A stretch of 64,000 nucleotides of DNA from positions 868,001 through 932,000 of the forward strand of contig NZ_CP062983.1 in the NCBI RefSeq assembly GCF_015500095.1, given 5' to 3'. This DNA comes from Phototrophicus methaneseepsis (GTDB lineage: Bacteria > Chloroflexota > Anaerolineae > Aggregatilineales > Phototrophicaceae). Shown here in pieces: positions 29,965-62,586 of the stretch. The notes under the pieces were generated by a model. It ran no database searches and was not told where the DNA came from. It saw nothing but the letters and a program-made list of their open reading frames with translations. Made by a program: the position numbers and the translations under genes. Numbering within the stretch: the first letter of the stretch is position 1; each line of letters begins with the position of its first letter.

Positions 29965-30030
29965 ATAGATGGCGGCGCTGGTGTTGGGATGCTTTGATTA
30001 TGTGATGGTAGATAGCCTCATGGAAACCAA

Positions 30031-30975
30031 ATGGGCGATTTAGCAGGCGATACGGCATTCATCCATCTGGATACAGATATGGGTGGCGATCTGGATGATT
30101 TGTGCGCGCTGGCAATGCTTTTGAGGTGGCCCGGCCTGACGATCACAGGCATCACCACCGTAACGGAAGATCAGGGTCGCCGTGCTGGTTACGTACAACA
30201 TGTGCTGGCGCTGGCAGAGCGTGAAGATATTCCGCTTGCAGCCGGGGCTGATGTGGCGTCTGGGACTTATCGCTTCGTACCGGGCTACCCGCCTGATGCC
30301 GACTATTGGCCGCCGACGGTCCAGCGCAGGCCAGGCCCTGTAGAAGATGCATTAGCGCGCCTCAAAAACAGCATTGAACGCGGCGCTGCCATTGTGGCAA
30401 TCGGCCAATATACCAACCTGAGGCTACTTGATGAACAGTATCCTGGTATCCTGCAGGATGCCAACCTGTTCCTGATGGGCGGCTGTGTGTTCCCTGCGCC
30501 AGCAGGGTACCTACAATGGGCGAATGAAGACGACTACAATATTCAGCTTGATGTGCACTCAGCGCGTTATGTGCTGGAACACAGCACCCCGACGCTTATC
30601 CCGATTGAAATCACCTGCCAGACAGCCCTTAAGCGCGCCTATCTGCCCCGGTTGGCTGCTACAGGCCCACTTGGGCAACTGCTCGCGCATCAATCAGAAG
30701 CTTTTGCGCGGGATAATCGCAATGAATCGACTTATGGTGTTTATGCTGGCTTACCAGATGACATCATTAATTTTCAACATGATCCGCTTGCATGTGCCAT
30801 TGCGCTCGGCTGGCGGGATGGCGTGCAAATAGAGACTATCCCGCTCGAAATCACCCTACAAGATGGGTGGCTGTACGAACGCCCATCGGCCACAGGCAAA
30901 CCCGTGCGCGTGGTCACGGCGATAGATGGCGAGTGTTTTAGTGACTTCTGGTGCGATGTGGTTTGTGGGGTATAA
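30031..30975 (+). CDS. Nucleoside hydrolase (IUNH family)
   Basis: The 314-residue protein starts with the calcium-binding signature DTDMGGDLDD at residues 14-23 (family form DTDxGxDDxxA) and contains the later loop YNIQLDVHSARYVLEH and HDPLACAIALG, the usual third metal/base region. It should cleave the N-glycosidic bond of purine or pyrimidine ribosides for salvage in the cytoplasm. The family has many members, so base preference is not predictable. ATG 30031 has a weak upstream gga. A stem-loop at 30983-31006 follows. Confidence 0.88.
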   Translation: MGDLAGDTAFIHLDTDMGGDLDDLCALAMLLRWPGLTITGITTVTEDQGRRAGYVQHVLALAEREDIPLAAGADVASGTYRFVPGYPPDADYWPPTVQRRPGPVEDALARLKNSIERGAAIVAIGQYTNLRLLDEQYPGILQDANLFLMGGCVFPAPAGYLQWANEDDYNIQLDVHSARYVLEHSTPTLIPIEITCQTALKRAYLPRLAATGPLGQLLAHQSEAFARDNRNESTYGVYAGLPDDIINFQHDPLACAIALGWRDGVQIETIPLEITLQDGWLYERPSATGKPVRVVTAIDGECFSDFWCDVVCGV

Positions 30976-30982
30976 AAACACA

Positions 30983-31006
30983 AGGGGCACGATTTATCGT
31001 GCCCCT
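30983..31006 (-). terminator. Stem-loop terminator between convergent genes
   Basis: AGGGGCACGA and TCGTGCCCCT form a 10-base stem with a 4-base loop, between genes ending at 30975 (+) and 31033 (-). On the minus strand it is followed by ttgtgttttta, a fair T-run; on the plus strand the run is poor. It mostly serves the minus-strand operon. Confidence 0.7.
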
Positions 31007-31032
31007 CTGCATGTGCGTTATATAGATGTGCG

Positions 31033-32118
31033 TTATATATTGACGGGGAGGGCCGCCGGACGTTCCGGTTGGCTCTCGATCGTGATGTGCTTGTGTTCGC
31101 TGGAGGATTCATCGAATGCCAGCATAATTTCCAGCACGTGATTGGCGAGCTCGCCACTGGCGCGGTGTGGCTGGTTGCTTTGCAAGCCCTTGGCAATATC
31201 TGCCACGCCGATACCACGACCGACATCATCACGATGGGTTAGTGCGATGTCCTGCCATTCGCCGGATTCCAGTGTATAGAGCTGGACGGGGCCTTTGAAT
31301 GTGTTCGGGTCTGGTACGCTGATGCTGCCCTCTGTGCCATAAATTTCAATACGTGGCAGGTGATGAGCGGCAATGTCGAAGCTCATGATCGCCGTACCGG
31401 TCGCGCCACTGGCGAATTGCAGTGTGCCGCTGTAGTGCGTATCGACGGAAATGGGCACATCCTGGCCTTTGATCGCTGCGTGACCTGCCACACGGCGCGG
31501 TACGCCGCGTGTCGTCACAGCAGCCACCGATTGCACGGGACCCATGAGGTTGACAAGCGCGGTCATGTAATACGGGCCCATATCGAGCATGGGGCCACCA
31601 CCAGGCTGATAGTAGAAGAATGGGTTCGGGTGCCAGGGCTCCGGCCCACGGCTGAGCATGAAAGCTGTCGCAGCAATCGGGGTACCAATGGCACCATCAT
31701 CAATCAACTTGCGCGCAGTTTGGCCGCCGCCCCCCAGGAAGGTATCCGGCGCACAGCCGACGCGCACGCCCTTTTCTGCGGCGGCCTTCACGATACGCTG
31801 ACCATCTTCTTTGGTGATGGCGAGTGGTTTTTCGCTGTGGACGTGCTTACCTGCTTCAATCGCTTTCAGGCTGACTTCTGCATGGACCGCCGGAATGGTC
31901 AGGTTAATGACAATGTCGATATCCGGCGATGCCAGCATGTTATCGACCGTCATGGCCTGGATGCCATTTTCATTGGCAAAGCTCTCGGCACGCTGCATAT
32001 CAATATCAGAGCATGCTGTGATCTTGATGGCTTCCGGGAAGAGTGCGCAGCCCTTGATGTACTGTGGCGCGATGTTACCAACGCCGATCAAACCCACATT
32101 ATAAATTTTGTCGCTCAC
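31033..32118 (-). CDS. Gfo/Idh/MocA family oxidoreductase
   Basis: The 361-residue protein starts with an NAD(P)-binding Rossmann fold (NVGLIGVGNIAPQYIKGC), has the active-site-type segment HVHSEKPLAITKEDGQRIV (EKP) and GGGPMLDMGPYYMTALVNLM with the D/H-containing motif seen in the C-terminal alpha/beta domain. It should oxidise or reduce a sugar or polyol using NAD(P). Its GTG start overlaps the stop of the upstream sugar-isomerase gene by 4 bases (GTGA), so the two are translationally coupled and likely act on the same sugar. Substrate unknown. Confidence 0.88.
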   Translation of the reverse strand: MSDKIYNVGLIGVGNIAPQYIKGCALFPEAIKITACSDIDMQRAESFANENGIQAMTVDNMLASPDIDIVINLTIPAVHAEVSLKAIEAGKHVHSEKPLAITKEDGQRIVKAAAEKGVRVGCAPDTFLGGGGQTARKLIDDGAIGTPIAATAFMLSRGPEPWHPNPFFYYQPGGGPMLDMGPYYMTALVNLMGPVQSVAAVTTRGVPRRVAGHAAIKGQDVPISVDTHYSGTLQFASGATGTAIMSFDIAAHHLPRIEIYGTEGSISVPDPNTFKGPVQLYTLESGEWQDIALTHRDDVGRGIGVADIAKGLQSNQPHRASGELANHVLEIMLAFDESSSEHKHITIESQPERPAALPVNI

Positions 32119-32882
32119 GAGATAATTCCCTGTTCTTTCAAGTAATTCCAGCTCTTTTCAACGGCTTCCATCATATCGGTGGCGCAATGATCTAATTCAA
32201 CGTAGATCGCTTTAGCGTCGACATCTTTCCCGGCCTCAACAATAGCGGGGATGTCCATTTTGCCCTCACCGAAGGGGAGCATGTGAGCATTGCGGTCGTT
32301 CGGGTCCAGCGGGCCATCTTTAATATGGATCATGCTGGCACGCGCGCCCAGTTCATGGATGAGTTCGAGCGGATCGACGCCGCCAAATTGCGCCCAATAA
32401 GTATCGACCTCAAATTTAACTTCTGGGTCGGTGGCTTCGCGCAGAATGGTATAAGCTGGGACACCATCAATCTTATTGGTGAATTCAAATTCATGATTGT
32501 GATAGCCGAATTCCATGCCGGCATCAGCGGCGACTTTGCAGGAATCGTTGAGCAGCATGGCAAAAGCCTCAACAGATTCTCTGTCAGCGTAGGTCTCTGG
32601 AGAGATCCATGGCACGAAGTAGCTGCTCATGCCGAACGTTTTCGCGGCTTCGATGTTTGCAGGACCTTCGTCCCCAATCGGCAGCGGTAGGTGCCCACTA
32701 ATTACGCTAAACCCCATATCTTTGAACAGGGCTGCTGATTCTTTAGGAGGCAGGGGTAAACCGCCGTAAATCTCCAGATTGCGAATGCCGAGATCATATA
32801 GGCGCTGCATCGTGCCTTTGAAATCGGCCTCAAGTGCTTCTCGCACCGTGTAAAGTTGGAGTCCAAAAAGTGGTTCTGACAC
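32115..32882 (-). CDS. Sugar phosphate isomerase/epimerase family protein (AP-endonuclease-2 fold)
   Basis: The 255-residue TIM-barrel protein has GLQLYTVREALEADFKGTMQ at the start, LEIYGG, VISGHLPL, FGYHNHEFEF and KFEVDTYWAQFGG, ending with the metal-site pattern MIHIKDGPLD...VELDHC. This is the common sugar isomerase/epimerase or inosose-dehydratase family, with His/Glu/Asp metal ligands. Start GTG 32882 is behind aagg 10 bases away. It lies 16 bases after holB and overlaps the oxidoreductase gene, an arrangement often seen for inositol or keto-sugar catabolism. Exact substrate cannot be given. Confidence 0.88.
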   Translation of the reverse strand: MSEPLFGLQLYTVREALEADFKGTMQRLYDLGIRNLEIYGGLPLPPKESAALFKDMGFSVISGHLPLPIGDEGPANIEAAKTFGMSSYFVPWISPETYADRESVEAFAMLLNDSCKVAADAGMEFGYHNHEFEFTNKIDGVPAYTILREATDPEVKFEVDTYWAQFGGVDPLELIHELGARASMIHIKDGPLDPNDRNAHMLPFGEGKMDIPAIVEAGKDVDAKAIYVELDHCATDMMEAVEKSWNYLKEQGIIS

Positions 32883-32898
32883 AGTAATAAGACCTTTT

Positions 32899-33909
32899 CT
32901 AAAGATGCGGATAATCTAAAAACATCGCTTCAAGCGCCAGACGCACATTGGCATTGGTGTTGAGCGTTTTTAGTAGCAATTCACGCGTGGCCTGTAGGGC
33001 ATGCAGGGCGGCTTCTGGCTGTAAGCGCACCACGATTTGCTCCAGCTCTGCGCGACGGTCGCTGTTACAAGGCTTGACCGGGCTATTTTCTGAGAGCAGC
33101 AGCAGGTCACGCCAATACGTCTGCCATGTTTCCAGAATATAGCGGACAGATTGCTTCGGCAGCTTTGCCAGTTCATCTGCGACGGCAAAACGTGCGGCCC
33201 TATTGCCCATGATGGCTTCATAGAGCATGGTCAGCATTTGATCGCGGTCTGCTAATACGGCTTCATCGTGCAAGGCTTCTAGCGCCCATCCGATGCGCCC
33301 ATTGCTGAGCCGACCAATCAAATCAGCTTGCTCATCTGTCGCCCCTTGTATCCTGAGCACTTCCTGCACCGTATCTGTCGAGGCCGGGCGCAGTCGGAGT
33401 ACCTGGCAGCGGCTGGTGATTGTCGACATGATATGCTCGGTGGATTGAGCTAGCAGGATAATCACGGCATGGGGCGGTGGCTCTTCTAATGTCTTGAGCA
33501 GCGCATCCTGCGCCTGGGGGCGCGCATTGTCGAAGTCTTCGAAGATGGCAATGCGATAGCTCGATGAGAAGGGCTTGAGCGCGATCAAGCGCATCACATC
33601 GCGGATGGCATCAATCCTGAGCGCACCTGTATTGTCATCCGCCTGACTGTAGAGCATATCCGGGTGATTGCCGCTGAGGATGCGCTTACAGGAGGCACAC
33701 TGCATACAGGGCCGGGCGAATTCATCCTCATTTTCGCACATCAGCGCCATGGCAAAGGCATGCGCCAGTTGGCGCTTACCAATATTTTCAGGCCCCAGGA
33801 ACAGGTAAGCATGACGGATGCGGTGATGGGCCAGGCTCTTCTGTAAGAAGGTCACAGCCCAGTCGTGCCCGTAGACGGGCCAGGGATTGAGAGCGCGATC
33901 ATTCATCAT
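32899..33909 (-). CDS. holB: DNA polymerase III delta' subunit
   Basis: The 336-residue protein is an AAA+ clamp-loader subunit. The N-terminal motif is HAYLFLGPENIGKRQLAHAFA (a P-loop close to the functional form), followed by a zinc module C-x2-C-x2-C region (CMQCASCKRILSGNHPD), the sensor region IAIFEDFDNARPQAQDALLKTLEEPPP and TSRCQVLRL. Delta' opens and loads the sliding clamp together with tau/gamma and delta. I start at ATG 33909 because TATAAT ends 6 bases before it (leaderless); ATG 33906 is equally possible. It heads an operon with the isomerase and oxidoreductase genes, an odd functional mix. Confidence 0.88.
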   Translation of the reverse strand: MMNDRALNPWPVYGHDWAVTFLQKSLAHHRIRHAYLFLGPENIGKRQLAHAFAMALMCENEDEFARPCMQCASCKRILSGNHPDMLYSQADDNTGALRIDAIRDVMRLIALKPFSSSYRIAIFEDFDNARPQAQDALLKTLEEPPPHAVIILLAQSTEHIMSTITSRCQVLRLRPASTDTVQEVLRIQGATDEQADLIGRLSNGRIGWALEALHDEAVLADRDQMLTMLYEAIMGNRAARFAVADELAKLPKQSVRYILETWQTYWRDLLLLSENSPVKPCNSDRRAELEQIVVRLQPEAALHALQATRELLLKTLNTNANVRLALEAMFLDYPHL

Positions 33910-33943
33910 ACTGTCATTATAGAAGCTTCTGGACATGTGCCAA
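33910..33943 (-). promoter_or_regulatory. Near-consensus leaderless promoter of holB
   Basis: On the minus strand TTGGCA (33943-33938) is followed by a 16-base spacer and TATAAT (33921-33916). Six bases (gacagt) then separate the -10 from ATG 33909, so the transcript should start at or next to the initiator A, without a leader or ribosome site. Confidence 0.7.
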
Positions 33944-34054
33944 GTGCCGGAAAACCATATATCACAAATCGTAGATTTTATAAAAGTTAATAACAGACTT
34001 GGCGGTTGAATGATATATTCAAAGTAGTAGCTTCGTTGCCATATAGGTTATCAA

Positions 34055-34900
34055 ATGACAGACAATACAATCTATGATTTAGAGATCCATAAAGAGTACC
34101 GAAGACGAGATTTGCATTCTGTTTTTAAAGGACAAATGCAGGGTGGCATTAGCACTCCTGCAAAATATGATGTTGTACTTTTATTTTCATCCAATAAATC
34201 ATCGAATATTTATAGCTTTGAAGATGGTTGGAATCCGGAAACAGGACTTTATTATTATGTTGGTGAAGGTCAAGTTGGCGATATGACCTTTCAAGGTGGT
34301 AATAAAGCTATTCGCGATCATCTGATAGACAATAAACATTTGCTTTTGTTTAAGTATGTTAGACAGGGAATAGTAAAATATTTGGGTGAATTTGTTTGTC
34401 TTAATCATCACTGTATACTTCTTCCAGATCGAGACAATAACGAAAGAAATGCTATAGTATTTGAACTTGTTCCAAAGTCCGATTTTGACTATGAAACATC
34501 CGAAGATGTTGACGAAATTTACTCTAGTGAAAACTATGAATTAAGTCTTGAACAGTTACGCTTGAAGGCTATGAATAGAGGAGATTCTGCTTCTACGCCA
34601 CTTGAGAGGAAACAAGTCTATTACAAGAGATGCAACATTATTAAACAATATGCGTTAAGACGAGCAAATGGAGTTTGTGAAGGATGTGGTCTATCAGCTC
34701 CATTTTACACAGACAAGGGTAATCCGTTTCTTGAAGTACATCATATAGATCGTATTGCGGACGGTGGTCCAGACGAAATAGATGCAGTTGTAGCTCTGTG
34801 TCCTAACTGCCATAGAAAAGTCCATTATGGGCAAGATGGGCCTCAATTTAATGAGTTTCTGCGCCAAAAAATAAAGAGTATAGAGAACACACTAAGTTAG
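34055..34900 (+). CDS. McrA-like HNH endonuclease with SRA-like N-terminal domain
   Basis: The 281-residue protein has an N-terminal part (about 20-165) like the SRA-type domain of ScoMcrA-type enzymes: GWNPETGLYYYVGEGQVGDM, then GGNKAIRDHL. The C-terminus is an HNH nuclease: CEGCGLSAPFY, FLEVHHIDRIADGG (catalytic His), VALCPNCHRKVHYG. Such proteins read modified cytosine and cut nearby, as a type IV restriction system. The gene is plainly AT-rich beside its neighbours and stands alone, with aagg-like weak ribosome site, so recent transfer is likely. The N-terminal call is from memory of the family and less firm than the HNH. Confidence 0.8.
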   Translation: MTDNTIYDLEIHKEYRRRDLHSVFKGQMQGGISTPAKYDVVLLFSSNKSSNIYSFEDGWNPETGLYYYVGEGQVGDMTFQGGNKAIRDHLIDNKHLLLFKYVRQGIVKYLGEFVCLNHHCILLPDRDNNERNAIVFELVPKSDFDYETSEDVDEIYSSENYELSLEQLRLKAMNRGDSASTPLERKQVYYKRCNIIKQYALRRANGVCEGCGLSAPFYTDKGNPFLEVHHIDRIADGGPDEIDAVVALCPNCHRKVHYGQDGPQFNEFLRQKIKSIENTLS

Positions 34901-35138
34901 TTAACTCGTATTAAGTTGAACGATAAGCTCAGACCATTATAATGGCCTGTTTGATTGATGCAATATGCTGGGTCTATTGCCCCCTGCTGATAACATAAAT
35001 GCATGTCTCTGGCCCGACTAAGCCAAGTTATGCCCGATGGCCTGTGAAATGCAGGAAAAATGACATATGCCTCCATGGGCGACATTGATTATTGTTAGAT
35101 CAAAATGTCTCACGCATTATTGAATTGAGGTATTTGTT

Positions 35139-36467
35139 ATGGCACTTTTTACAAAGGAAGACGCACTTGACTATCATCGCTTAGGACGCCCCGGTAAATT
35201 AGAGGTTGTTCCGACCAAGGCGATGGATACCCAACGCGATCTATCGATGGCTTATTCCCCTGGCGTTGCAGAAGCCGTCCTGGAAGTTGCAGATGACGCC
35301 CTGCAAGCATTTGAGCTCACCGCGAAATCCAACTTAGTCGCTGTCCTCACCAATGGTACAGCAATCCTGGGCCTGGGTAATCGGGGGCCGCTGGCCGCTA
35401 AGCCAGTGATGGAAGGCAAAGCCGTTCTATTCAAGAAATTTGCTGATATTGATGCCTTTGATATTGAAGTCAATTGCACGGATCCCGAGAAAATTATTGA
35501 AGTTGCTGCTGCTATTTCTCCTACATTTGGTGCAATCAACCTGGAAGATATCAAAGCCCCGGAATGCTTCGTCATCGAAGAACGTCTGAAGGCGATGCTG
35601 GATATTCCTGTTTTCCATGATGACCAGCATGGCACCGCGATTATCTCCGCTGCTGCGTTGCTCAACGCTTGTGAACTGACCAACCGCGATTTTGCGAACC
35701 TGCGGGTTGTGGTCAATGGGGCAGGTGCCGCAGCTGTTGCAACGGCCAATCTGTACATCAATATGGGTATTCAGCGCGAGAATATCCTCATGCTGGATTC
35801 TCGCGGTGTCCTGTATAAGGGCCGCAGTGGCATGAATGAATACAAGGAACAATTCGCGGTCGATACCGATGCCCGCACGCTGGAAGATGCAATGGTCGGT
35901 GCTGATTTGTTCCTGGGTGTTTCCGTCGCTGATGTGCTGACGCAGGATATGGTCAAGAGCATGGCGGATAACCCCATTATCTTCGCCCTGGCGAACCCGG
36001 ACCCGGAAATTACGCCGGCTGCTGCTTTCGCTGCTCGTGATGATGTCATTATGGCGACGGGGCGCAGCGATTACCCCAACCAGGTGAACAACGTCCTGGG
36101 CTTCCCGTTCTTGTTCCGTGGCGCGCTGGATACTTACGCGACGGGCATCAATGAAGAGATGAAGATTGCTGCCGTAAAGGCACTGGCAAGCCTGGCACAT
36201 GAACCGGTGCCCGATGATATGCTCGATGCATATAACCTAGATTCGCTCGAATTTAGCCGTGAATACCTGATCCCGAAACCACTGGATGCCCGTGTTTTGC
36301 TGCATGTGGCCCCGGCAGTGGCCCAGGCCGCGATGGATTCCGGCGTGGCGCGCCGCACGATTGATATTGATGAATATCGTGAAGAACTGGAAGGCCGTCA
36401 CAATCACTCAATGATTGCCCGTGTGATTGACGATGAACCGATTCATTACGCGCATACTGGCGTCTAG
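35139..36467 (+). CDS. NAD(P)-dependent malic enzyme
   Basis: The 442-residue protein starts with [20 protein letters not shown] and has [52 protein letters not shown] (metal/substrate loop) and [21 protein letters not shown], the NAD(P) site. It decarboxylates malate to pyruvate in the cytoplasm. The length lacks the phosphotransacetylase tail of MaeB, so it is the short bacterial form. gaggtat precedes the ATG by about 8 bases. An excellent terminator closes it. Coenzyme preference cannot be set by eye. Confidence 0.93.
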
Positions 36468-36515
36468 AATTGTATCCTCCCCGTTTAAACTTGGTTTAAA
36501 CTCTGGCTTAGGAAC

Positions 36516-36557
36516 AACGAACGTGGGGCACAATAGCTGTGCCCCACGTTCGTTTTC
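36516..36557 (+). terminator. Strong intrinsic terminator after malic enzyme gene
   Basis: AACGAACGTGGGGCACA and TGTGCCCCACGTTCGTT form a perfect 17-base stem around the loop atagc (36533-36537), followed by ttcaat. It lies 49 bases after the stop. Confidence 0.85.
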
Positions 36558-36668
36558 AATAGATTTTCAATAGATTTACGGCGTCTACCCGTGGTAATGA
36601 AAAGGCATGATGTAAACTGCCCTTGCATGAACTGATTGATGCTATGAAAGCGATAAGGAGCCTTTTAC

Positions 36669-37061
36669 ATGGATCATAAGACAGAAGGCGAACGTTTTTT
36701 GAGTGAAAATAGCAAGCTGGCTGGTGTCCAGGTCACACCCAGCGGCCTGCAATATAAAGTCTTAGAAGAAGGCAGCGGCCCCAAGCCTGATGCGTCGGAT
36801 ATGGTAGAAGTGCATTATCGGGGCACCCTGATTGATGGCACGGAATTTGACAGCAGCTACAAACGCGGTCAGACGACCCAATTCCCCTTAAACGCGGTCA
36901 TCGCGGGTTGGACGGAAGGCTTGCAGTTGATGTCCCCCGGCGCAAAATACACGCTCTATATCCCCTATACCCTGGGCTATGGTCCCCGTGGTACACCCGG
37001 CGGCCCCATCCCGCCCTATGCTGCGCTGATCTTCGACGTGGAACTCATTGACATCAAATAA
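36669..37061 (+). CDS. FKBP-type peptidyl-prolyl cis-trans isomerase
   Basis: The 130-residue protein is a single FKBP domain: VHYRGTLIDGTEFDSSYKRGQ, FPLNAVIAGWTEGLQLM and YTLYIPYTLGYGPRGTPG, then IPPYAALIFDVELIDI, with the aromatic pocket residues in place. An N-terminal helix (GERFLSENSKL) is that of the FkpA/Mip-like small forms without their dimer helix. No signal peptide, so it acts in the cytoplasm on proline-limited folding. aaggag precedes ATG by 8 bases. Confidence 0.93.
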   Translation: MDHKTEGERFLSENSKLAGVQVTPSGLQYKVLEEGSGPKPDASDMVEVHYRGTLIDGTEFDSSYKRGQTTQFPLNAVIAGWTEGLQLMSPGAKYTLYIPYTLGYGPRGTPGGPIPPYAALIFDVELIDIK

Positions 37062-37262
37062 GCCAAACAGTGATCTGTTTCTATCTCCAGACATGATAGC
37101 CTGTTGCCGTGCCGCTCTTCGCTTAGTGGCACGGTTGGCTTTTACAGCCAAACGATTAAGCTGTTCTAGATGGAACGGTGTATATAGGGCATGTGTCTTT
37201 TACTCTAGATAACAGCCTGTTTGGCTGTATCTCCAAGATTCATGGCAGCGAAAGGTCCCAAT

Positions 37263-38165
37263 GTGAAGCTCGCAGTTAATTACTCTGTTGCCCTGGCTGA
37301 ACTCATCCGTGAAAACATTGTCGATGTTGATGTTTTTAAGTGCCCTCTCTGGCCCGAAACGCTTACAGAAGCCCAATCTCTCCGTCCTGTTTATGCGCAT
37401 CTCCCGCTGGTCATCCTGGGTGACGGCAAAGTCACCAACAGCGAAGCCAGGGCGGAAGTTGATTGGGATGCGCTGGATGCCCTCGTCGCCCATACAGAAA
37501 CGCGCCATATCAATTTACATCCATCAGCCCAGCCGGAATTGTTCCCAGATATCCCCAAAGACAGCACCGCCCCCCAGCACGTTGAACAATTCATAGAAGC
37601 GATGATCGACTGTGTTCATGTGGCGATTGCACGCTATGGTGCTGACAATGTCCTGGTAGAGAATGTGCCCTGGGGTGGCCTGGATGTGGTTGCACTGCCG
37701 GATGTCAGCCGCGTGATTGTAGCGGAGACAGGGTGCGGCTTCTTGTTCGATCTCTCACACGCTCAATTGGCGGCGCGCCATCTGGGTATGGATGCCAAAG
37801 ATTACATCGCTCAACTGCCGATGGACCACATCCAGGAGATGCACGTTACAGGTATTCACTTCATAGGCGAGGCGGTGCAGGCCCACATGCGCGAGCTAAA
37901 CGTGCCTGAGTCCTTTATTGAACGATGGGCAGGCCGCTGGCTAGATCATTTATCGTTTACCGAGGATGATTGGTCCATCCTTGAATGGGCCTTTGAACAA
38001 CTCCATGGGGGTACCTGGGCGCAGCCCTGGGTTGTTTCCATGGAATATGGTGGTGTTGGCCCGATCTGGGAAGACCTGGCTGAACGTCACATCCTCATGG
38101 ACCAGGTGCCGCGCCTATATCATCTCGTTCATGCTGAAACCGTGAGCGAAGATGGTACAGATTAG
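37263..38165 (+). CDS. DUF692-like (MNIO-type TIM barrel) protein, no precursor seen
   Basis: The 300-residue protein resembles the DUF692 family of multinuclear iron oxidases by eye: NVLVENVPWGGLDVV, LFDLSHAQLAARHLGM followed by IAQLPMDHIQEMHVTG (family: DVxNxYV...YLxxLPxxxVxxIHLAG), and a late VVSMEYGGVGPIWE. Some metal ligands differ from characterised members (His for Asn at the DLSH site), so activity is uncertain. MNIO enzymes such as MbnB modify peptide precursors with a partner protein. I start at GTG 37263 behind aaagg; the frame is open to 37221. No precursor or partner gene is adjacent, so any peptide role is unproven. Confidence 0.6.
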   Translation: MKLAVNYSVALAELIRENIVDVDVFKCPLWPETLTEAQSLRPVYAHLPLVILGDGKVTNSEARAEVDWDALDALVAHTETRHINLHPSAQPELFPDIPKDSTAPQHVEQFIEAMIDCVHVAIARYGADNVLVENVPWGGLDVVALPDVSRVIVAETGCGFLFDLSHAQLAARHLGMDAKDYIAQLPMDHIQEMHVTGIHFIGEAVQAHMRELNVPESFIERWAGRWLDHLSFTEDDWSILEWAFEQLHGGTWAQPWVVSMEYGGVGPIWEDLAERHILMDQVPRLYHLVHAETVSEDGTD

Positions 38166-38678
38166 TTATTCGGGCGTATAAGGTGCTTTCTCGCCCAATG
38201 CCCCGACGAAGCCGGGCAGGTCTTTATGGCCGAGCAACTGCCGTATCGCCTGTGATTCGCCCAGATGAAACCAATAATGATAGGTGGTACGTAGTAAACG
38301 CGTGCCGATATTCTCACGATGGAATTCACCGGGTTTATCGAGTTGGGGCGTATGCGTTTCTAACTGGGTCGCATCAAGTGTATTCAACCAGGTATCCGCC
38401 TGGTCTGTGATGCGGTGCCACGCGGCCCACATCTCATCTAGATTGGGCGTGCTGGCTGGCTGCCCACTGGCACAAACGAGGACTTCCGGCGCGGGGGTGA
38501 TGCCCTGCACATGTGTGATCCAGTAAGCTTGCTCCTGTGCCGCCAGGTGCCCCACAATCCAACTGATGCAGTTCATGGGCCCAAAATGCTGGATGGCTTC
38601 CTCCGGTGTGACGTCCCTCAGCCCACGCTCGAATTCTGTTCGTGTGAATTGTAATTGGCTCACCAATGGATGTGGCAT
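38166..38678 (-). CDS. DinB-family protein
   Basis: The 170-residue protein is a four-helix-bundle member of the DinB/YfiT group: MPHPLVSQLQFTRTEFERGL, then WIVGHLAAQEQAYWITH (the first metal-binding His) and NIGTRLLRTTYHYWFHLGESQAIRQLLG with two further histidines. Members include thiol-dependent transferases and proteins of unknown role. ATG 38678 lies near aggggga. Its stop is immediately beside that of the convergent DUF692-like gene. Confidence 0.82.
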   Translation of the reverse strand: MPHPLVSQLQFTRTEFERGLRDVTPEEAIQHFGPMNCISWIVGHLAAQEQAYWITHVQGITPAPEVLVCASGQPASTPNLDEMWAAWHRITDQADTWLNTLDATQLETHTPQLDKPGEFHRENIGTRLLRTTYHYWFHLGESQAIRQLLGHKDLPGFVGALGEKAPYTPE

Positions 38679-38763
38679 TGTTCCCCCTGTTGCCATACGA
38701 ACCGCTTAGCATATGCTCGATTATACCGTAGTGCTAGTTGATATGGTGGGACTTCATTCTGTA

Positions 38764-39315
38764 TCAGGCATTTTTCCAGATGGTGGCGTATTTCTTGCGA
38801 TATTTGGTATCCGGCTCTGTTTCGATGAGCATCAATGCCCTGGATTTGACCGACTCGTCCCCGGTTGCATCATAGAGATGGCGCAGGTCCTGAATGATGT
38901 CGTAACGGATGAGCGTGGTGTTCTTTTCTGCTGTGCAATCCTGGTAGCGCATCGTAAGGCCATCCATCACCATCTGGCGCTGTTGTTCCCCGGCTAGCCC
39001 CACCTTCCAGATCGTTTGCAAGCAGTGGCGCGCCGTGACGAAGCGCTCATCACGGGTCACATTCAGCAGAACGTCGAAATCTTTCATCATGCGCTGGTCG
39101 GGGTCACTGATGGCGAGCTGGCATAGGATTTGTGAGGTGATGGCGCGGATGTGATTATCTTTGTGCGTCAGCCCCGCGACGAGTTCGTCCCATACGTCAT
39201 AAGCCCAGTCAACGGGCTGCTGGGTGGCTTCCATCAATGCATCATAGGCATCATTCTGTACGGCTTTATCTTTGGCATAAAGGTTTTCAAAGGTCGCCTT
39301 GATCACGGTGTCCAT
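38764..39315 (-). CDS. HEAT-repeat-like protein
   Basis: The 183-residue protein is all-helical with repeated helix pairs, e.g. DAYDALMEATQQPVDWAYDVW, DNHIRAITSQILCQLAISD and ARHCLQTIWKVGLA, resembling HEAT repeats. No catalytic residue is visible. The frame is open to 39477 but ATG 39315 has aggag 10 bases upstream at the stop of the DUF2277 gene, so this start is preferred. The two genes form an operon. HEAT proteins usually bind partner proteins; the partner is unknown. Confidence 0.72.
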   Translation of the reverse strand: MDTVIKATFENLYAKDKAVQNDAYDALMEATQQPVDWAYDVWDELVAGLTHKDNHIRAITSQILCQLAISDPDQRMMKDFDVLLNVTRDERFVTARHCLQTIWKVGLAGEQQRQMVMDGLTMRYQDCTAEKNTTLIRYDIIQDLRHLYDATGDESVKSRALMLIETEPDTKYRKKYATIWKNA

Positions 39316-61546: not shown

Positions 61547-62416
61547 ATGAGCTACGACCAGAACTCTAATTATCCTATTCCAGTATATTTAAATCAGCAA
61601 ATTGTATTTGATTTATTAGCTGTTAAAGAAGATGGTTTTTCCATGATACGTACTGTCAAAACGTCTGAAAATGAAGAGAACACTAAAGGGAAATCTCTAC
61701 AAGGAAATGTTGGAGTAAATAATGTGTTTGCCTTATTGGGAATAGGTCTAGAAGCTAATAAAGATGAAGCTCAAACTCAGAGTGGAAAAACCCAATCCCA
61801 ACAAGAAAAAATCCACACACCTAATTCTTTGTTTGCTAAACTACGCACTATATTACAGAAGGAAAAAGTTATAAGACAGGATATAGATATTAATAAATTA
61901 AAAGTTGGAGATTTTGTTGAAGTTGACGTAACACTTACAAAAGCTCCGCTAATTTCTATACTTGAGACATACTTGGAATTAATAAAATATAAGAGTTTAT
62001 TTGGGGATGCATCTAGTAATTCTTCAGCTAAAAAACAGAAACTAAGTCCTGATAAACAATTGCAAGAATTATTAGTCGCCATTAGTCCTAAAAACGCAAT
62101 TCCACTAATTGATACACAGGATAAGATCCAAATTATTATTTCTGCCAAAATAGATTTTTTTCTCAATCAGGATGTTAGCGAAGCATTGGATGGAGAGTTT
62201 CGAGTGTTAGGCAAAGTAACTCGACTAGTTAAAGAAAAGGATGAGACTATAAGTTTGTTGAATCGTACTAGCTTTTCTTTGTTTAGCTCTGATGTGTTTC
62301 GTACAATGATTGATGATTTAAATAACCTCGGTGAATATGCATTAAATTTGCCCTATGTCCAGTTAGAGATAAATTCACCTGCTATACAAATAATGCCAAT
62401 AGCGATTTTCCGATAA
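61547..62416 (+). CDS. AT-rich hypothetical protein, possible DUF6414-like
   Basis: The 289-residue protein has VYLNQQIVFDLLAVKEDGFS near the start, a low-complexity, Gln/Lys/Glu-rich segment at about 75-90 and a beta-rich C-terminal half. From memory it resembles the DUF6414 group (YLN/YLD, then LLA, then DGFS), without certainty. No membrane helix. Its base and codon use (many AT-rich codons) differ clearly from its neighbours, and it lies directly before tRNA-Gly, so recent transfer is likely. A TATAAT at 61490-61495 lies 50 bases upstream. Function is unknown; no partner genes accompany it. Confidence 0.7.
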   Translation: MSYDQNSNYPIPVYLNQQIVFDLLAVKEDGFSMIRTVKTSENEENTKGKSLQGNVGVNNVFALLGIGLEANKDEAQTQSGKTQSQQEKIHTPNSLFAKLRTILQKEKVIRQDIDINKLKVGDFVEVDVTLTKAPLISILETYLELIKYKSLFGDASSNSSAKKQKLSPDKQLQELLVAISPKNAIPLIDTQDKIQIIISAKIDFFLNQDVSEALDGEFRVLGKVTRLVKEKDETISLLNRTSFSLFSSDVFRTMIDDLNNLGEYALNLPYVQLEINSPAIQIMPIAIFR

Positions 62417-62510: not shown

Positions 62511-62582
62511 GCGGGTGTAGTTCAGCGGTAGAACGTTTCCTTGCCAAGGAAAAGGTCACGAGTTCGAATCTCGTCACCCGCT
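62511..62582 (+). tRNA. tRNA-Gly(GCC)
   Basis: 72 bases fold into a standard cloverleaf: acceptor arms GCGGGTG and CACCCGC with a T discriminator, D-arm around gTTCAGCGGTAgaac, anticodon loop CTTGCCAAG with GCC, and T-arm GTTCGAATC. The CCA end is not encoded. A promoter precedes it and an intrinsic terminator follows at once. Confidence 0.95.
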
Positions 62583-62586
62583 CAAG

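What the first reader, a model, noticed from the sequence alone, without database searches (positions are those of the whole stretch)
34055..34900. AT-rich lone McrA-like nuclease, a likely type IV restriction system
An SRA-like reader and HNH nuclease are fused in an AT-rich gene amid GC-richer housekeeping genes, without a methylase. This suggests recent gain of a modification-dependent restriction enzyme.
Basis: partly seen in the sequence, partly recalled or inferred. Interest (0 to 1): 0.5.

Follow-up and report, generated by a model that had tools for sequence, protein, structure and literature searches.

The report
Lone SRA-HNH modified-DNA restriction enzyme
A deep-sea Chloroflexota bacterium carries a probably recently acquired single-gene enzyme that most likely finds DNA bearing chemically modified cytosines, such as some viral DNA, and cuts it: a new but ordinary member of a known family of bacterial defence nucleases.

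Summary
The gene is real: 34055-34900 (+), 281 aa, GC 36.4% against 53.1% for the rest of the window. Its AlphaFold model (mean pLDDT 88.7) has an SRA reader (about 1-146) and an EcoKMcrA-type HNH nuclease (about 165-281). The best fold match is ScoMcrA (5zmm); TagI, EcoKMcrA, MspJI and SUVH5 follow. A family profile aligns along the SRA-HNH part of ScoMcrA; the head and sulfur-binding domains are missing. Catalytic His and zinc residues are kept; the middle Asn of HNH is Ala here and variable in the family.

Gain is supported. Of 61 genomes (itself and 60 relatives) only its own has the full-length gene; 4 of 396 class genomes do. The congener is syntenic up to holB but carries a different AT-rich gene there. 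Relatives occur on plasmids, viral contigs and distant chromosomes, with no conserved partner found. The genome has no detectable C5-cytosine methylase, as this mechanism requires, but neither do two thirds of the class.

Verdict: a modification-dependent (type IV) SRA-HNH restriction enzyme, probably for 5mC/5hmC; base specificity is inferred. New member of a known kind. Side finds: reader-only SRA proteins, and one SRA-HNH-methylase fusion, in other members of the class.

The parts
34055..34900 (+). SRA-HNH endonuclease gene, 281 aa
   Evidence: (PADLOC mREase_IV PDLC03656 E 2.3e-26, over the HNH half)
34055..34492 (+). SRA-type modified-base reader domain, residues about 1-146
   Evidence: AF2 model; VIA-align 5zmn Z 14.4, SUVH5 3q0c Z 12.7, TagI 6ghs Z 11.2; ScoMcrA match
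34217..34258 (+). putative flipped-base pocket residues F55, D57 and Y68 (TagI Tyr55, Asp57/58, Tyr67)
   Evidence: profile alignment to TagI (the SRA piece itself scores below zero there), pocket residues from PMC6212794 section 20, conservation in 58 sequences
34547..34897 (+). EcoKMcrA-type HNH nuclease domain, residues about 165-281
   Evidence: phmmer to 6ghc E 8.4e-26; VIA-align 6ghc_B Z 9.8, rmsd 2.3, 40% identity over 87
34676..34828 (+). HNH core: zinc C208, C211, C249, C252; catalytic H230, D240, H253, H257; the middle Asn position is A244
   Evidence: PF01844; alignment to TagI; column counts
33937..35138 (.). AT-rich stretch between holB and malic enzyme (GC 0.347 left and 0.408 right of the gene); no flanking repeats of 14 bases or more found

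Best explanation
The gene encodes a stand-alone, NTP-independent, modification-dependent (type IV) restriction endonuclease. The N-terminal SRA domain scans DNA, flips a modified cytosine (5mC or 5hmC most likely) into its pocket and holds the enzyme there; the C-terminal zinc-stabilised HNH domains of two protomers dimerise and cut both strands near the modified base. The host lacks a detectable C5 methylase, so self DNA is spared and incoming modified phage or plasmid DNA is cut. The gene was gained horizontally, probably recently. Shown by computation: domain folds, active-site residues, AT-richness, patchy distribution, no C5 methylase found. Inferred: base flipping, dimerisation, 5mC/5hmC specificity, cleavage and defence.
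For: Fold: Foldseek best hits are ScoMcrA 5zmm (E 1.6e-15), TagI 6ghs (8.2e-08), EcoKMcrA 6ghc (1.6e-07), MspJI (9.4e-06) and SUVH5 SRA (9.9e-06). Sequence: the family profile aligns with ScoMcrA residues 264-555 in one stretch, E 1.3e-25. Catalysis: H230, D240, H253, H257 and the four zinc Cys are invariant in 58 of 58. Known behaviour of the kind: TagI cuts 5mC/5hmC DNA (PMC6212794 abstract); ScoMcrA prefers 5hmC DNA and restricts T4gt about 1.6 x 10^3-fold (PMC7461809 section 13). Gain: GC outlier, absent in the congener, 4 of 396 class genomes full length, relatives on plasmids (89 records) and viral contigs (113 of 154 pattern stretches). Self-compatibility: no PF00145 in the genome; 0 of 11 SRA-bearing class genomes have one against 133 of 396 overall (P 0.010).
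Against: No assay. Pfam SAD_SRA does not hit this protein. The pocket acid is two residues after the aromatic residue here, three after it in TagI, and this protein alone of 58 has F55 and S54. PMC6224610 (passages) reports that ScoMcrA-SRA, the nearest solved relative, lacks the NKR finger and thumb and that the 5mC-recognising residues of UHRF1/SUVH5 are not conserved in it. [quoted passage not shown] The middle Asn of HNH is Ala; TagI needs its Asn. The methylase test is weak: 263 of 396 class genomes also lack PF00145, the four full-length carriers alone give P 0.19, and P 0.010 ignores shared ancestry and rests on 7 reader-only genomes. Homologues are not AT-rich as a rule: 48 of 80 are below their flanks, mean difference -0.013.
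Confidence: 0.8

Rival explanations
1. It is a modification-dependent nuclease, but the SRA pocket of this ScoMcrA-type branch reads another modification (for example m4C or a hypermodified phage pyrimidine) rather than 5mC/5hmC.
For: Shifted pocket acid and unusual S54/F55; UHRF1-type 5mC contacts are reported as not conserved in ScoMcrA-SRA (PMC6224610 passages); one relative is fused to an N4/N6 methylase and some proviral relatives lie beside genes like an MT-A70 adenine methylase (14 of 80 viral loci).
Against: ScoMcrA itself cuts 5mC/5hmC DNA; aromatic, Asp and Tyr pocket positions are near-invariant in the family; none of 11 SRA carriers in the class has a C5 methylase.
Confidence: 0.12
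2. It is phage-derived cargo (superinfection exclusion or a selfish HNH nuclease) stranded in the chromosome, with no host-serving defence role now.
For: Many relatives lie in viral contigs and one in a Rhizobium phage record near an annotated attL; nine neighbouring window proteins have no PADLOC match, so it is not in a known defence island.
Against: I saw no phage genes or integrase among the ORFs at 30000-39000 (read by eye) and no repeats; the ORF is intact and keeps its catalytic His and zinc residues; relatives also occur on plasmids and many chromosomes. Carriage by phage does not exclude defence.
Confidence: 0.07
3. An old, vertically inherited gene of the phylum with compositional drift.
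For: A few other class members carry full-length or reader-only homologues; the SRA tree cannot place the window row.
Against: Full length only in its own genome of 61 and in 4 of 396 class genomes; absent in the congener beside the syntenic holB.
Confidence: 0.01

Closest known systems
ScoMcrA (Sco4631; PDB 5zmm, 5zmn)
   Same: Reader and nuclease align in one stretch with the family profile (E 1.3e-25); best Foldseek hit
   Different: ScoMcrA has an N-terminal head and a sulfur-binding domain, both missing here; its HNH has N522 (PMC6224610 passage), here Ala
TagI and the SRA-HNH family (ScoA3IV, TbiR51I; PDB 6ghs)
   Same: Same order SRA then HNH, similar size, SRA Z 11.2
   Different: Low sequence identity (17-18%); CxxC in place of TagI's CxxD; His257 where TagI has Asp258; pocket acid shifted by one residue
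EcoKMcrA (PDB 6ghc)
   Same: HNH domain: 40% identity over 87 structurally aligned residues, E 8.4e-26
   Different: EcoKMcrA's reader is NEco (PMC7145662 abstract in listing), not SRA

Membership tests
SRA-HNH modification-dependent restriction endonucleases (type IV) | N-terminal SRA fold | tested here: met
   PF02182 in 18 of 58 family members, not in the window protein itself
SRA-HNH modification-dependent restriction endonucleases (type IV) | C-terminal HNH with zinc site and catalytic His residues | tested here: met
   the middle Asn is absent (A244), and only 23 of 58 family members have it
SRA-HNH modification-dependent restriction endonucleases (type IV) | No cognate methylase; host free of clashing C5 methylation | tested here: met
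   PF00145 0 hits in own genome, controls 10 of 14; class baseline 133 of 396 have it, so absence is common anyway
SRA-HNH modification-dependent restriction endonucleases (type IV) | Conserved flipped-base pocket (aromatic, Asp, Tyr) | tested here: inconclusive
   F55, D57, Y68 present, acid offset by one residue against TagI; no DNA-bound model made
SRA-HNH modification-dependent restriction endonucleases (type IV) | Cleaves 5mC/5hmC DNA and spares unmodified DNA | not testable with these tools
   needs an enzyme assay
ScoMcrA type (head-SBD-SRA-HNH) | Sulfur-binding domain before the SRA | tested here: not met
   the protein is 281 aa with the SRA at its N terminus; the profile match to ScoMcrA begins at ScoMcrA residue 264
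EcoKMcrA family (NEco-HNH) | NEco reader domain | tested here: not met
   6ghc matches the HNH half by sequence and in VIA-align; the first 146 residues match SRA folds

The most novel reading that the evidence does not exclude
This ScoMcrA-type SRA branch reads a modification other than 5mC/5hmC; its reader-only relatives (L003-L006) and the SRA-HNH-methylase fusion (L257) in the same class hint at a wider, undescribed use of SRA readers, possibly including a single chain that both methylates and polices DNA.
Probability: 0.1. Interest if true: 0.55.

Novelty: new member of a known kind. Interest (0 to 1): 0.25.

Why it matters
It adds a compact enzyme (the SRA-HNH half of ScoMcrA without its sulfur-binding part) from what appears to be a cultured deep-sea Chloroflexota strain to the type IV restriction repertoire, and may affect whether methylated plasmids can be put into that strain.

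Tried and rejected
Close-homologue scans with the single protein found nothing in genome contigs or viral contigs; an alignment query was needed. A conserved partner gene: clustering of 710 neighbour ORFs (90 aa or more) of 80 homologue loci gave no family in more than 9 loci; the commonest is an integrase family (PF00589 in the representative; 9 of 80), then GMP synthase (7 of 80, mostly Psychrobacter). Amino-methylase partners: similar genes in 4 of 80 genome loci and 14 of 80 viral loci, with only five methylase-like proteins seen near or fused to homologues as queries, so other methylase families were missed. A tree of the SRA part (76 rows, 138 columns) did not resolve the window's place: it lies in an open fork with Bacillota, Chloroflexota and others, end branch 1.36; donor unknown. 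Flanking repeats: none. The PF02182 search of the own genome rang in no control genome and so shows nothing. G271, whose match spans residues 109-275 and which has a C5 methylase, was checked: its 260-aa ORF, read by eye, shows no SRA-like start, so I count it as HNH-only. CMoRE (PMC12923530) was considered and dropped: GIY-YIG nuclease, a different family (abstract and passages). The architecture-guided screen of modification-dependent enzymes (PMC6765204) is not held; its content is not used. DALI-scale lists give no meaning to families not listed.

Rows dropped: of the 80 genome loci, 57 entered alignment A2 and 70 entered the tree (ten left out for uncertain starts, an internal stop or unusual length); all 80 are in the GC count, one of them with an internal stop. 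L008 was left out of the tree (partial). Annotated-region calls were made for 11 of the 40 plasmid and phage hits.

Full report
Observation. The ORF 34055-34900 (+) exists and encodes 281 aa. Its GC is 0.364 against 0.531 for the rest of the window. Among 327 ORFs of 150 aa or more from the window and 20 sampled 20-kb stretches of the same genome (mean 0.523, sd 0.041) it is the second lowest; 0 of 400 sampled 1-kb windows have GC 0.366 or less. It sits between holB (32899-33936, -; PF13177) and a malic enzyme (35139-36467, +; PF00390). Nine neighbouring proteins have no PADLOC match. The genome has 5,631,885 bases in one contig, the size published for Phototrophicus methaneseepsis ZRK33, 5,631,885 bp (PMC8941918, passage seen); I take the host to be that strain by this match alone.

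What it is. Pfam sees HNH (E 7e-11) and, below its cut-off, DUF7097 over the same half; PADLOC gives mREase_IV (E 2.3e-26) over the HNH half; phmmer against the PDB gives EcoKMcrA 6ghc for the HNH half (8.4e-26) and ScoMcrA 5zmm in two pieces, the SRA piece weak. An alignment of the window protein with 57 of the 80 genome homologues (A2), used as a profile, matches ScoMcrA 264-555 in a single stretch (E 1.3e-25), TagI only over the HNH part (E 0.0021) and SUVH5 SRA weakly (E 0.25). PF02182 (SAD_SRA) hits 18 of 58 members, best 2.4e-05, but not the window protein. The AlphaFold2 model (mean pLDDT 88.7, pTM 0.80) matches ScoMcrA, TagI, EcoKMcrA, MspJI and SUVH5 in Foldseek. VIA-align gives the N-terminal part Z 14.4 to 5zmn (rmsd 3.5, 138 aligned, model 1-189), Z 12.7 to SUVH5 3q0c (3.0, 124, model 6-145) and Z 11.2 to TagI (3.0, 125, model 6-142), and the HNH part Z 9.8 to 6ghc_B (2.3, 87). 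The relative placing of the two domains is not supported by these matches (whole-chain rmsd 15-18).

Residues. Against TagI (alignment; roles from PMC6212794 sections 20 and 21): C208, C211, C249 and C252 are the zinc ligands; H230 is the general base, D240 its partner, H253 and H257 are metal-side residues. All are invariant in 58 of 58. TagI Asn245 corresponds to A244; the column has Asn in 23 of 58 and Ala in 4. Pocket: TagI Tyr55, Asp58 and Tyr67 correspond to F55 (Tyr in 57 of 58), D57 (Asp in 56 of 58; one residue nearer than in TagI) and Y68 (Tyr in 58 of 58). The 5mC/5hmC reading is therefore plausible but not shown; PMC6224610 (passages) says that ScoMcrA-SRA lacks UHRF1/SUVH5-type contacts while ScoMcrA still cuts 5mC DNA.

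Gain. In 396 class genomes 13 have matches at 1e-15: 4 full length (G000, G062, G196, G282), 7 reader-only (one, G037, partial) and 2 HNH-only. The congener G001 keeps the oxidoreductase, isomerase and holB order next to this site but has, upstream of holB, a different AT-rich gene (DUF5677, GC 0.376). First-kilobase GC upstream of holB is 0.362 and 0.378 in these two genomes and 0.446 or more in the 22 other family genomes examined: perhaps a genus-level slot for foreign genes, though this rests on two cases. Two of the right-hand genes (malic enzyme; the 37221 gene) lie on other contigs in G001, so the site is also a synteny break. The window gene's GC gap to its surroundings (-0.167) exceeds that of all 80 homologues (lowest -0.137). 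That the gain was recent is inferred from composition; no sequenced donor or close relative was found.

Family spread. No neighbour family recurs in more than 9 of 80 genome loci; the commonest is an integrase. Genes like the MT-A70 or other methylase-like genes seen near relatives occur in 14 of 80 viral and 4 of 80 genome loci, 13 of the 19 within 1 kb.

Methylase test. PF00145 is absent from the own genome (rings in 10 of 14 controls). In the class 133 of 396 have it. Read by eye from that listing, none of the 4 full-length carriers (P 0.19) and none of the 11 SRA-bearing genomes together has it (P 0.010). Shared ancestry is not corrected for, and reader-only proteins cannot cut by themselves, so this is a hint, not proof. 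The TagI authors made the same argument for their host (PMC6212794 section 29).

Conclusion. A type IV, SRA-HNH modification-dependent restriction enzyme, probably acquired recently; new member of a known kind. Literature seen: TagI paper PMC6212794 (abstract, sections 20, 21, 28, 29), PMC7461809 (abstract, section 13), PMC6224610 (passages), PMC12923530 (abstract, passages), PMC8941918 (start of abstract in a listing, passages), PMC7145662 (start of abstract in listings). A search for SRA domain, HNH and Chloroflexi together listed two papers; I did not search for print mentions of this very gene.

Noticed in passing
L257 1486-3729 (genome G062, same class): One 747-aa ORF joins an SRA-HNH half to an N4/N6 DNA methylase (PF01555 E 4.9e-21). 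No plasmid record covers 80% of it (0 of 158 matching); none of the 80 genome homologues runs more than about 43 aa past its match. Viral loci were not checked for it.
   Followed up: partly
L003, L004, L005, L006 (by match only also L260-L262; L008 partial): Reader-only SRA proteins of about 130-145 aa without HNH (starts chosen by me for L003 and L006); 7 of 396 class genomes have reader-only matches. L003 and L005 lie in the same place in two genomes of one genus; dN 0.093, dS 0.63 against 0.023 and 0.36 for the neighbouring permease-like gene, which suggests purifying selection. In the tree L003-L006 group with full-length enzymes.
   Followed up: partly
L007 1504-3282: SRA domain and a GH1 glycosidase (PF00232 E 6.1e-86) in one 592-aa frame; could be a real fusion or an assembly fault.
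   Followed up: no
window 35139-36467: Malic enzyme is 442 aa, whereas 33 of the 36 other genomes matched have an open frame of 750-819 aa; a C-terminal part (by recall a phosphotransacetylase-like domain) seems absent here.
   Followed up: no
window 61547-62416: Another very AT-rich gene (GC 0.326, the lowest of 327 ORFs), DUF6414 (PF19952 E 8.2e-40; no PADLOC match), just upstream of tRNA-Gly 62511-62583: possibly a second foreign gene.
   Followed up: partly
L002 1027-1908 (own genome, near C1:3188829): A second HNH protein of 293 aa between a tRNA synthetase (PF00579, trpS-like) and a glycosyl transferase family 3 gene (PF00591, trpD-like), with a similar protein at the same place in the congener (L009): an older, probably vertical HNH gene with an unidentified N-terminal half.
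   Followed up: partly
L152 5682-7004 (genome G001): AT-rich DUF5677 gene (GC 0.376) in the slot upstream of holB where the window has the SRA-HNH gene; no PADLOC match.
   Followed up: partly
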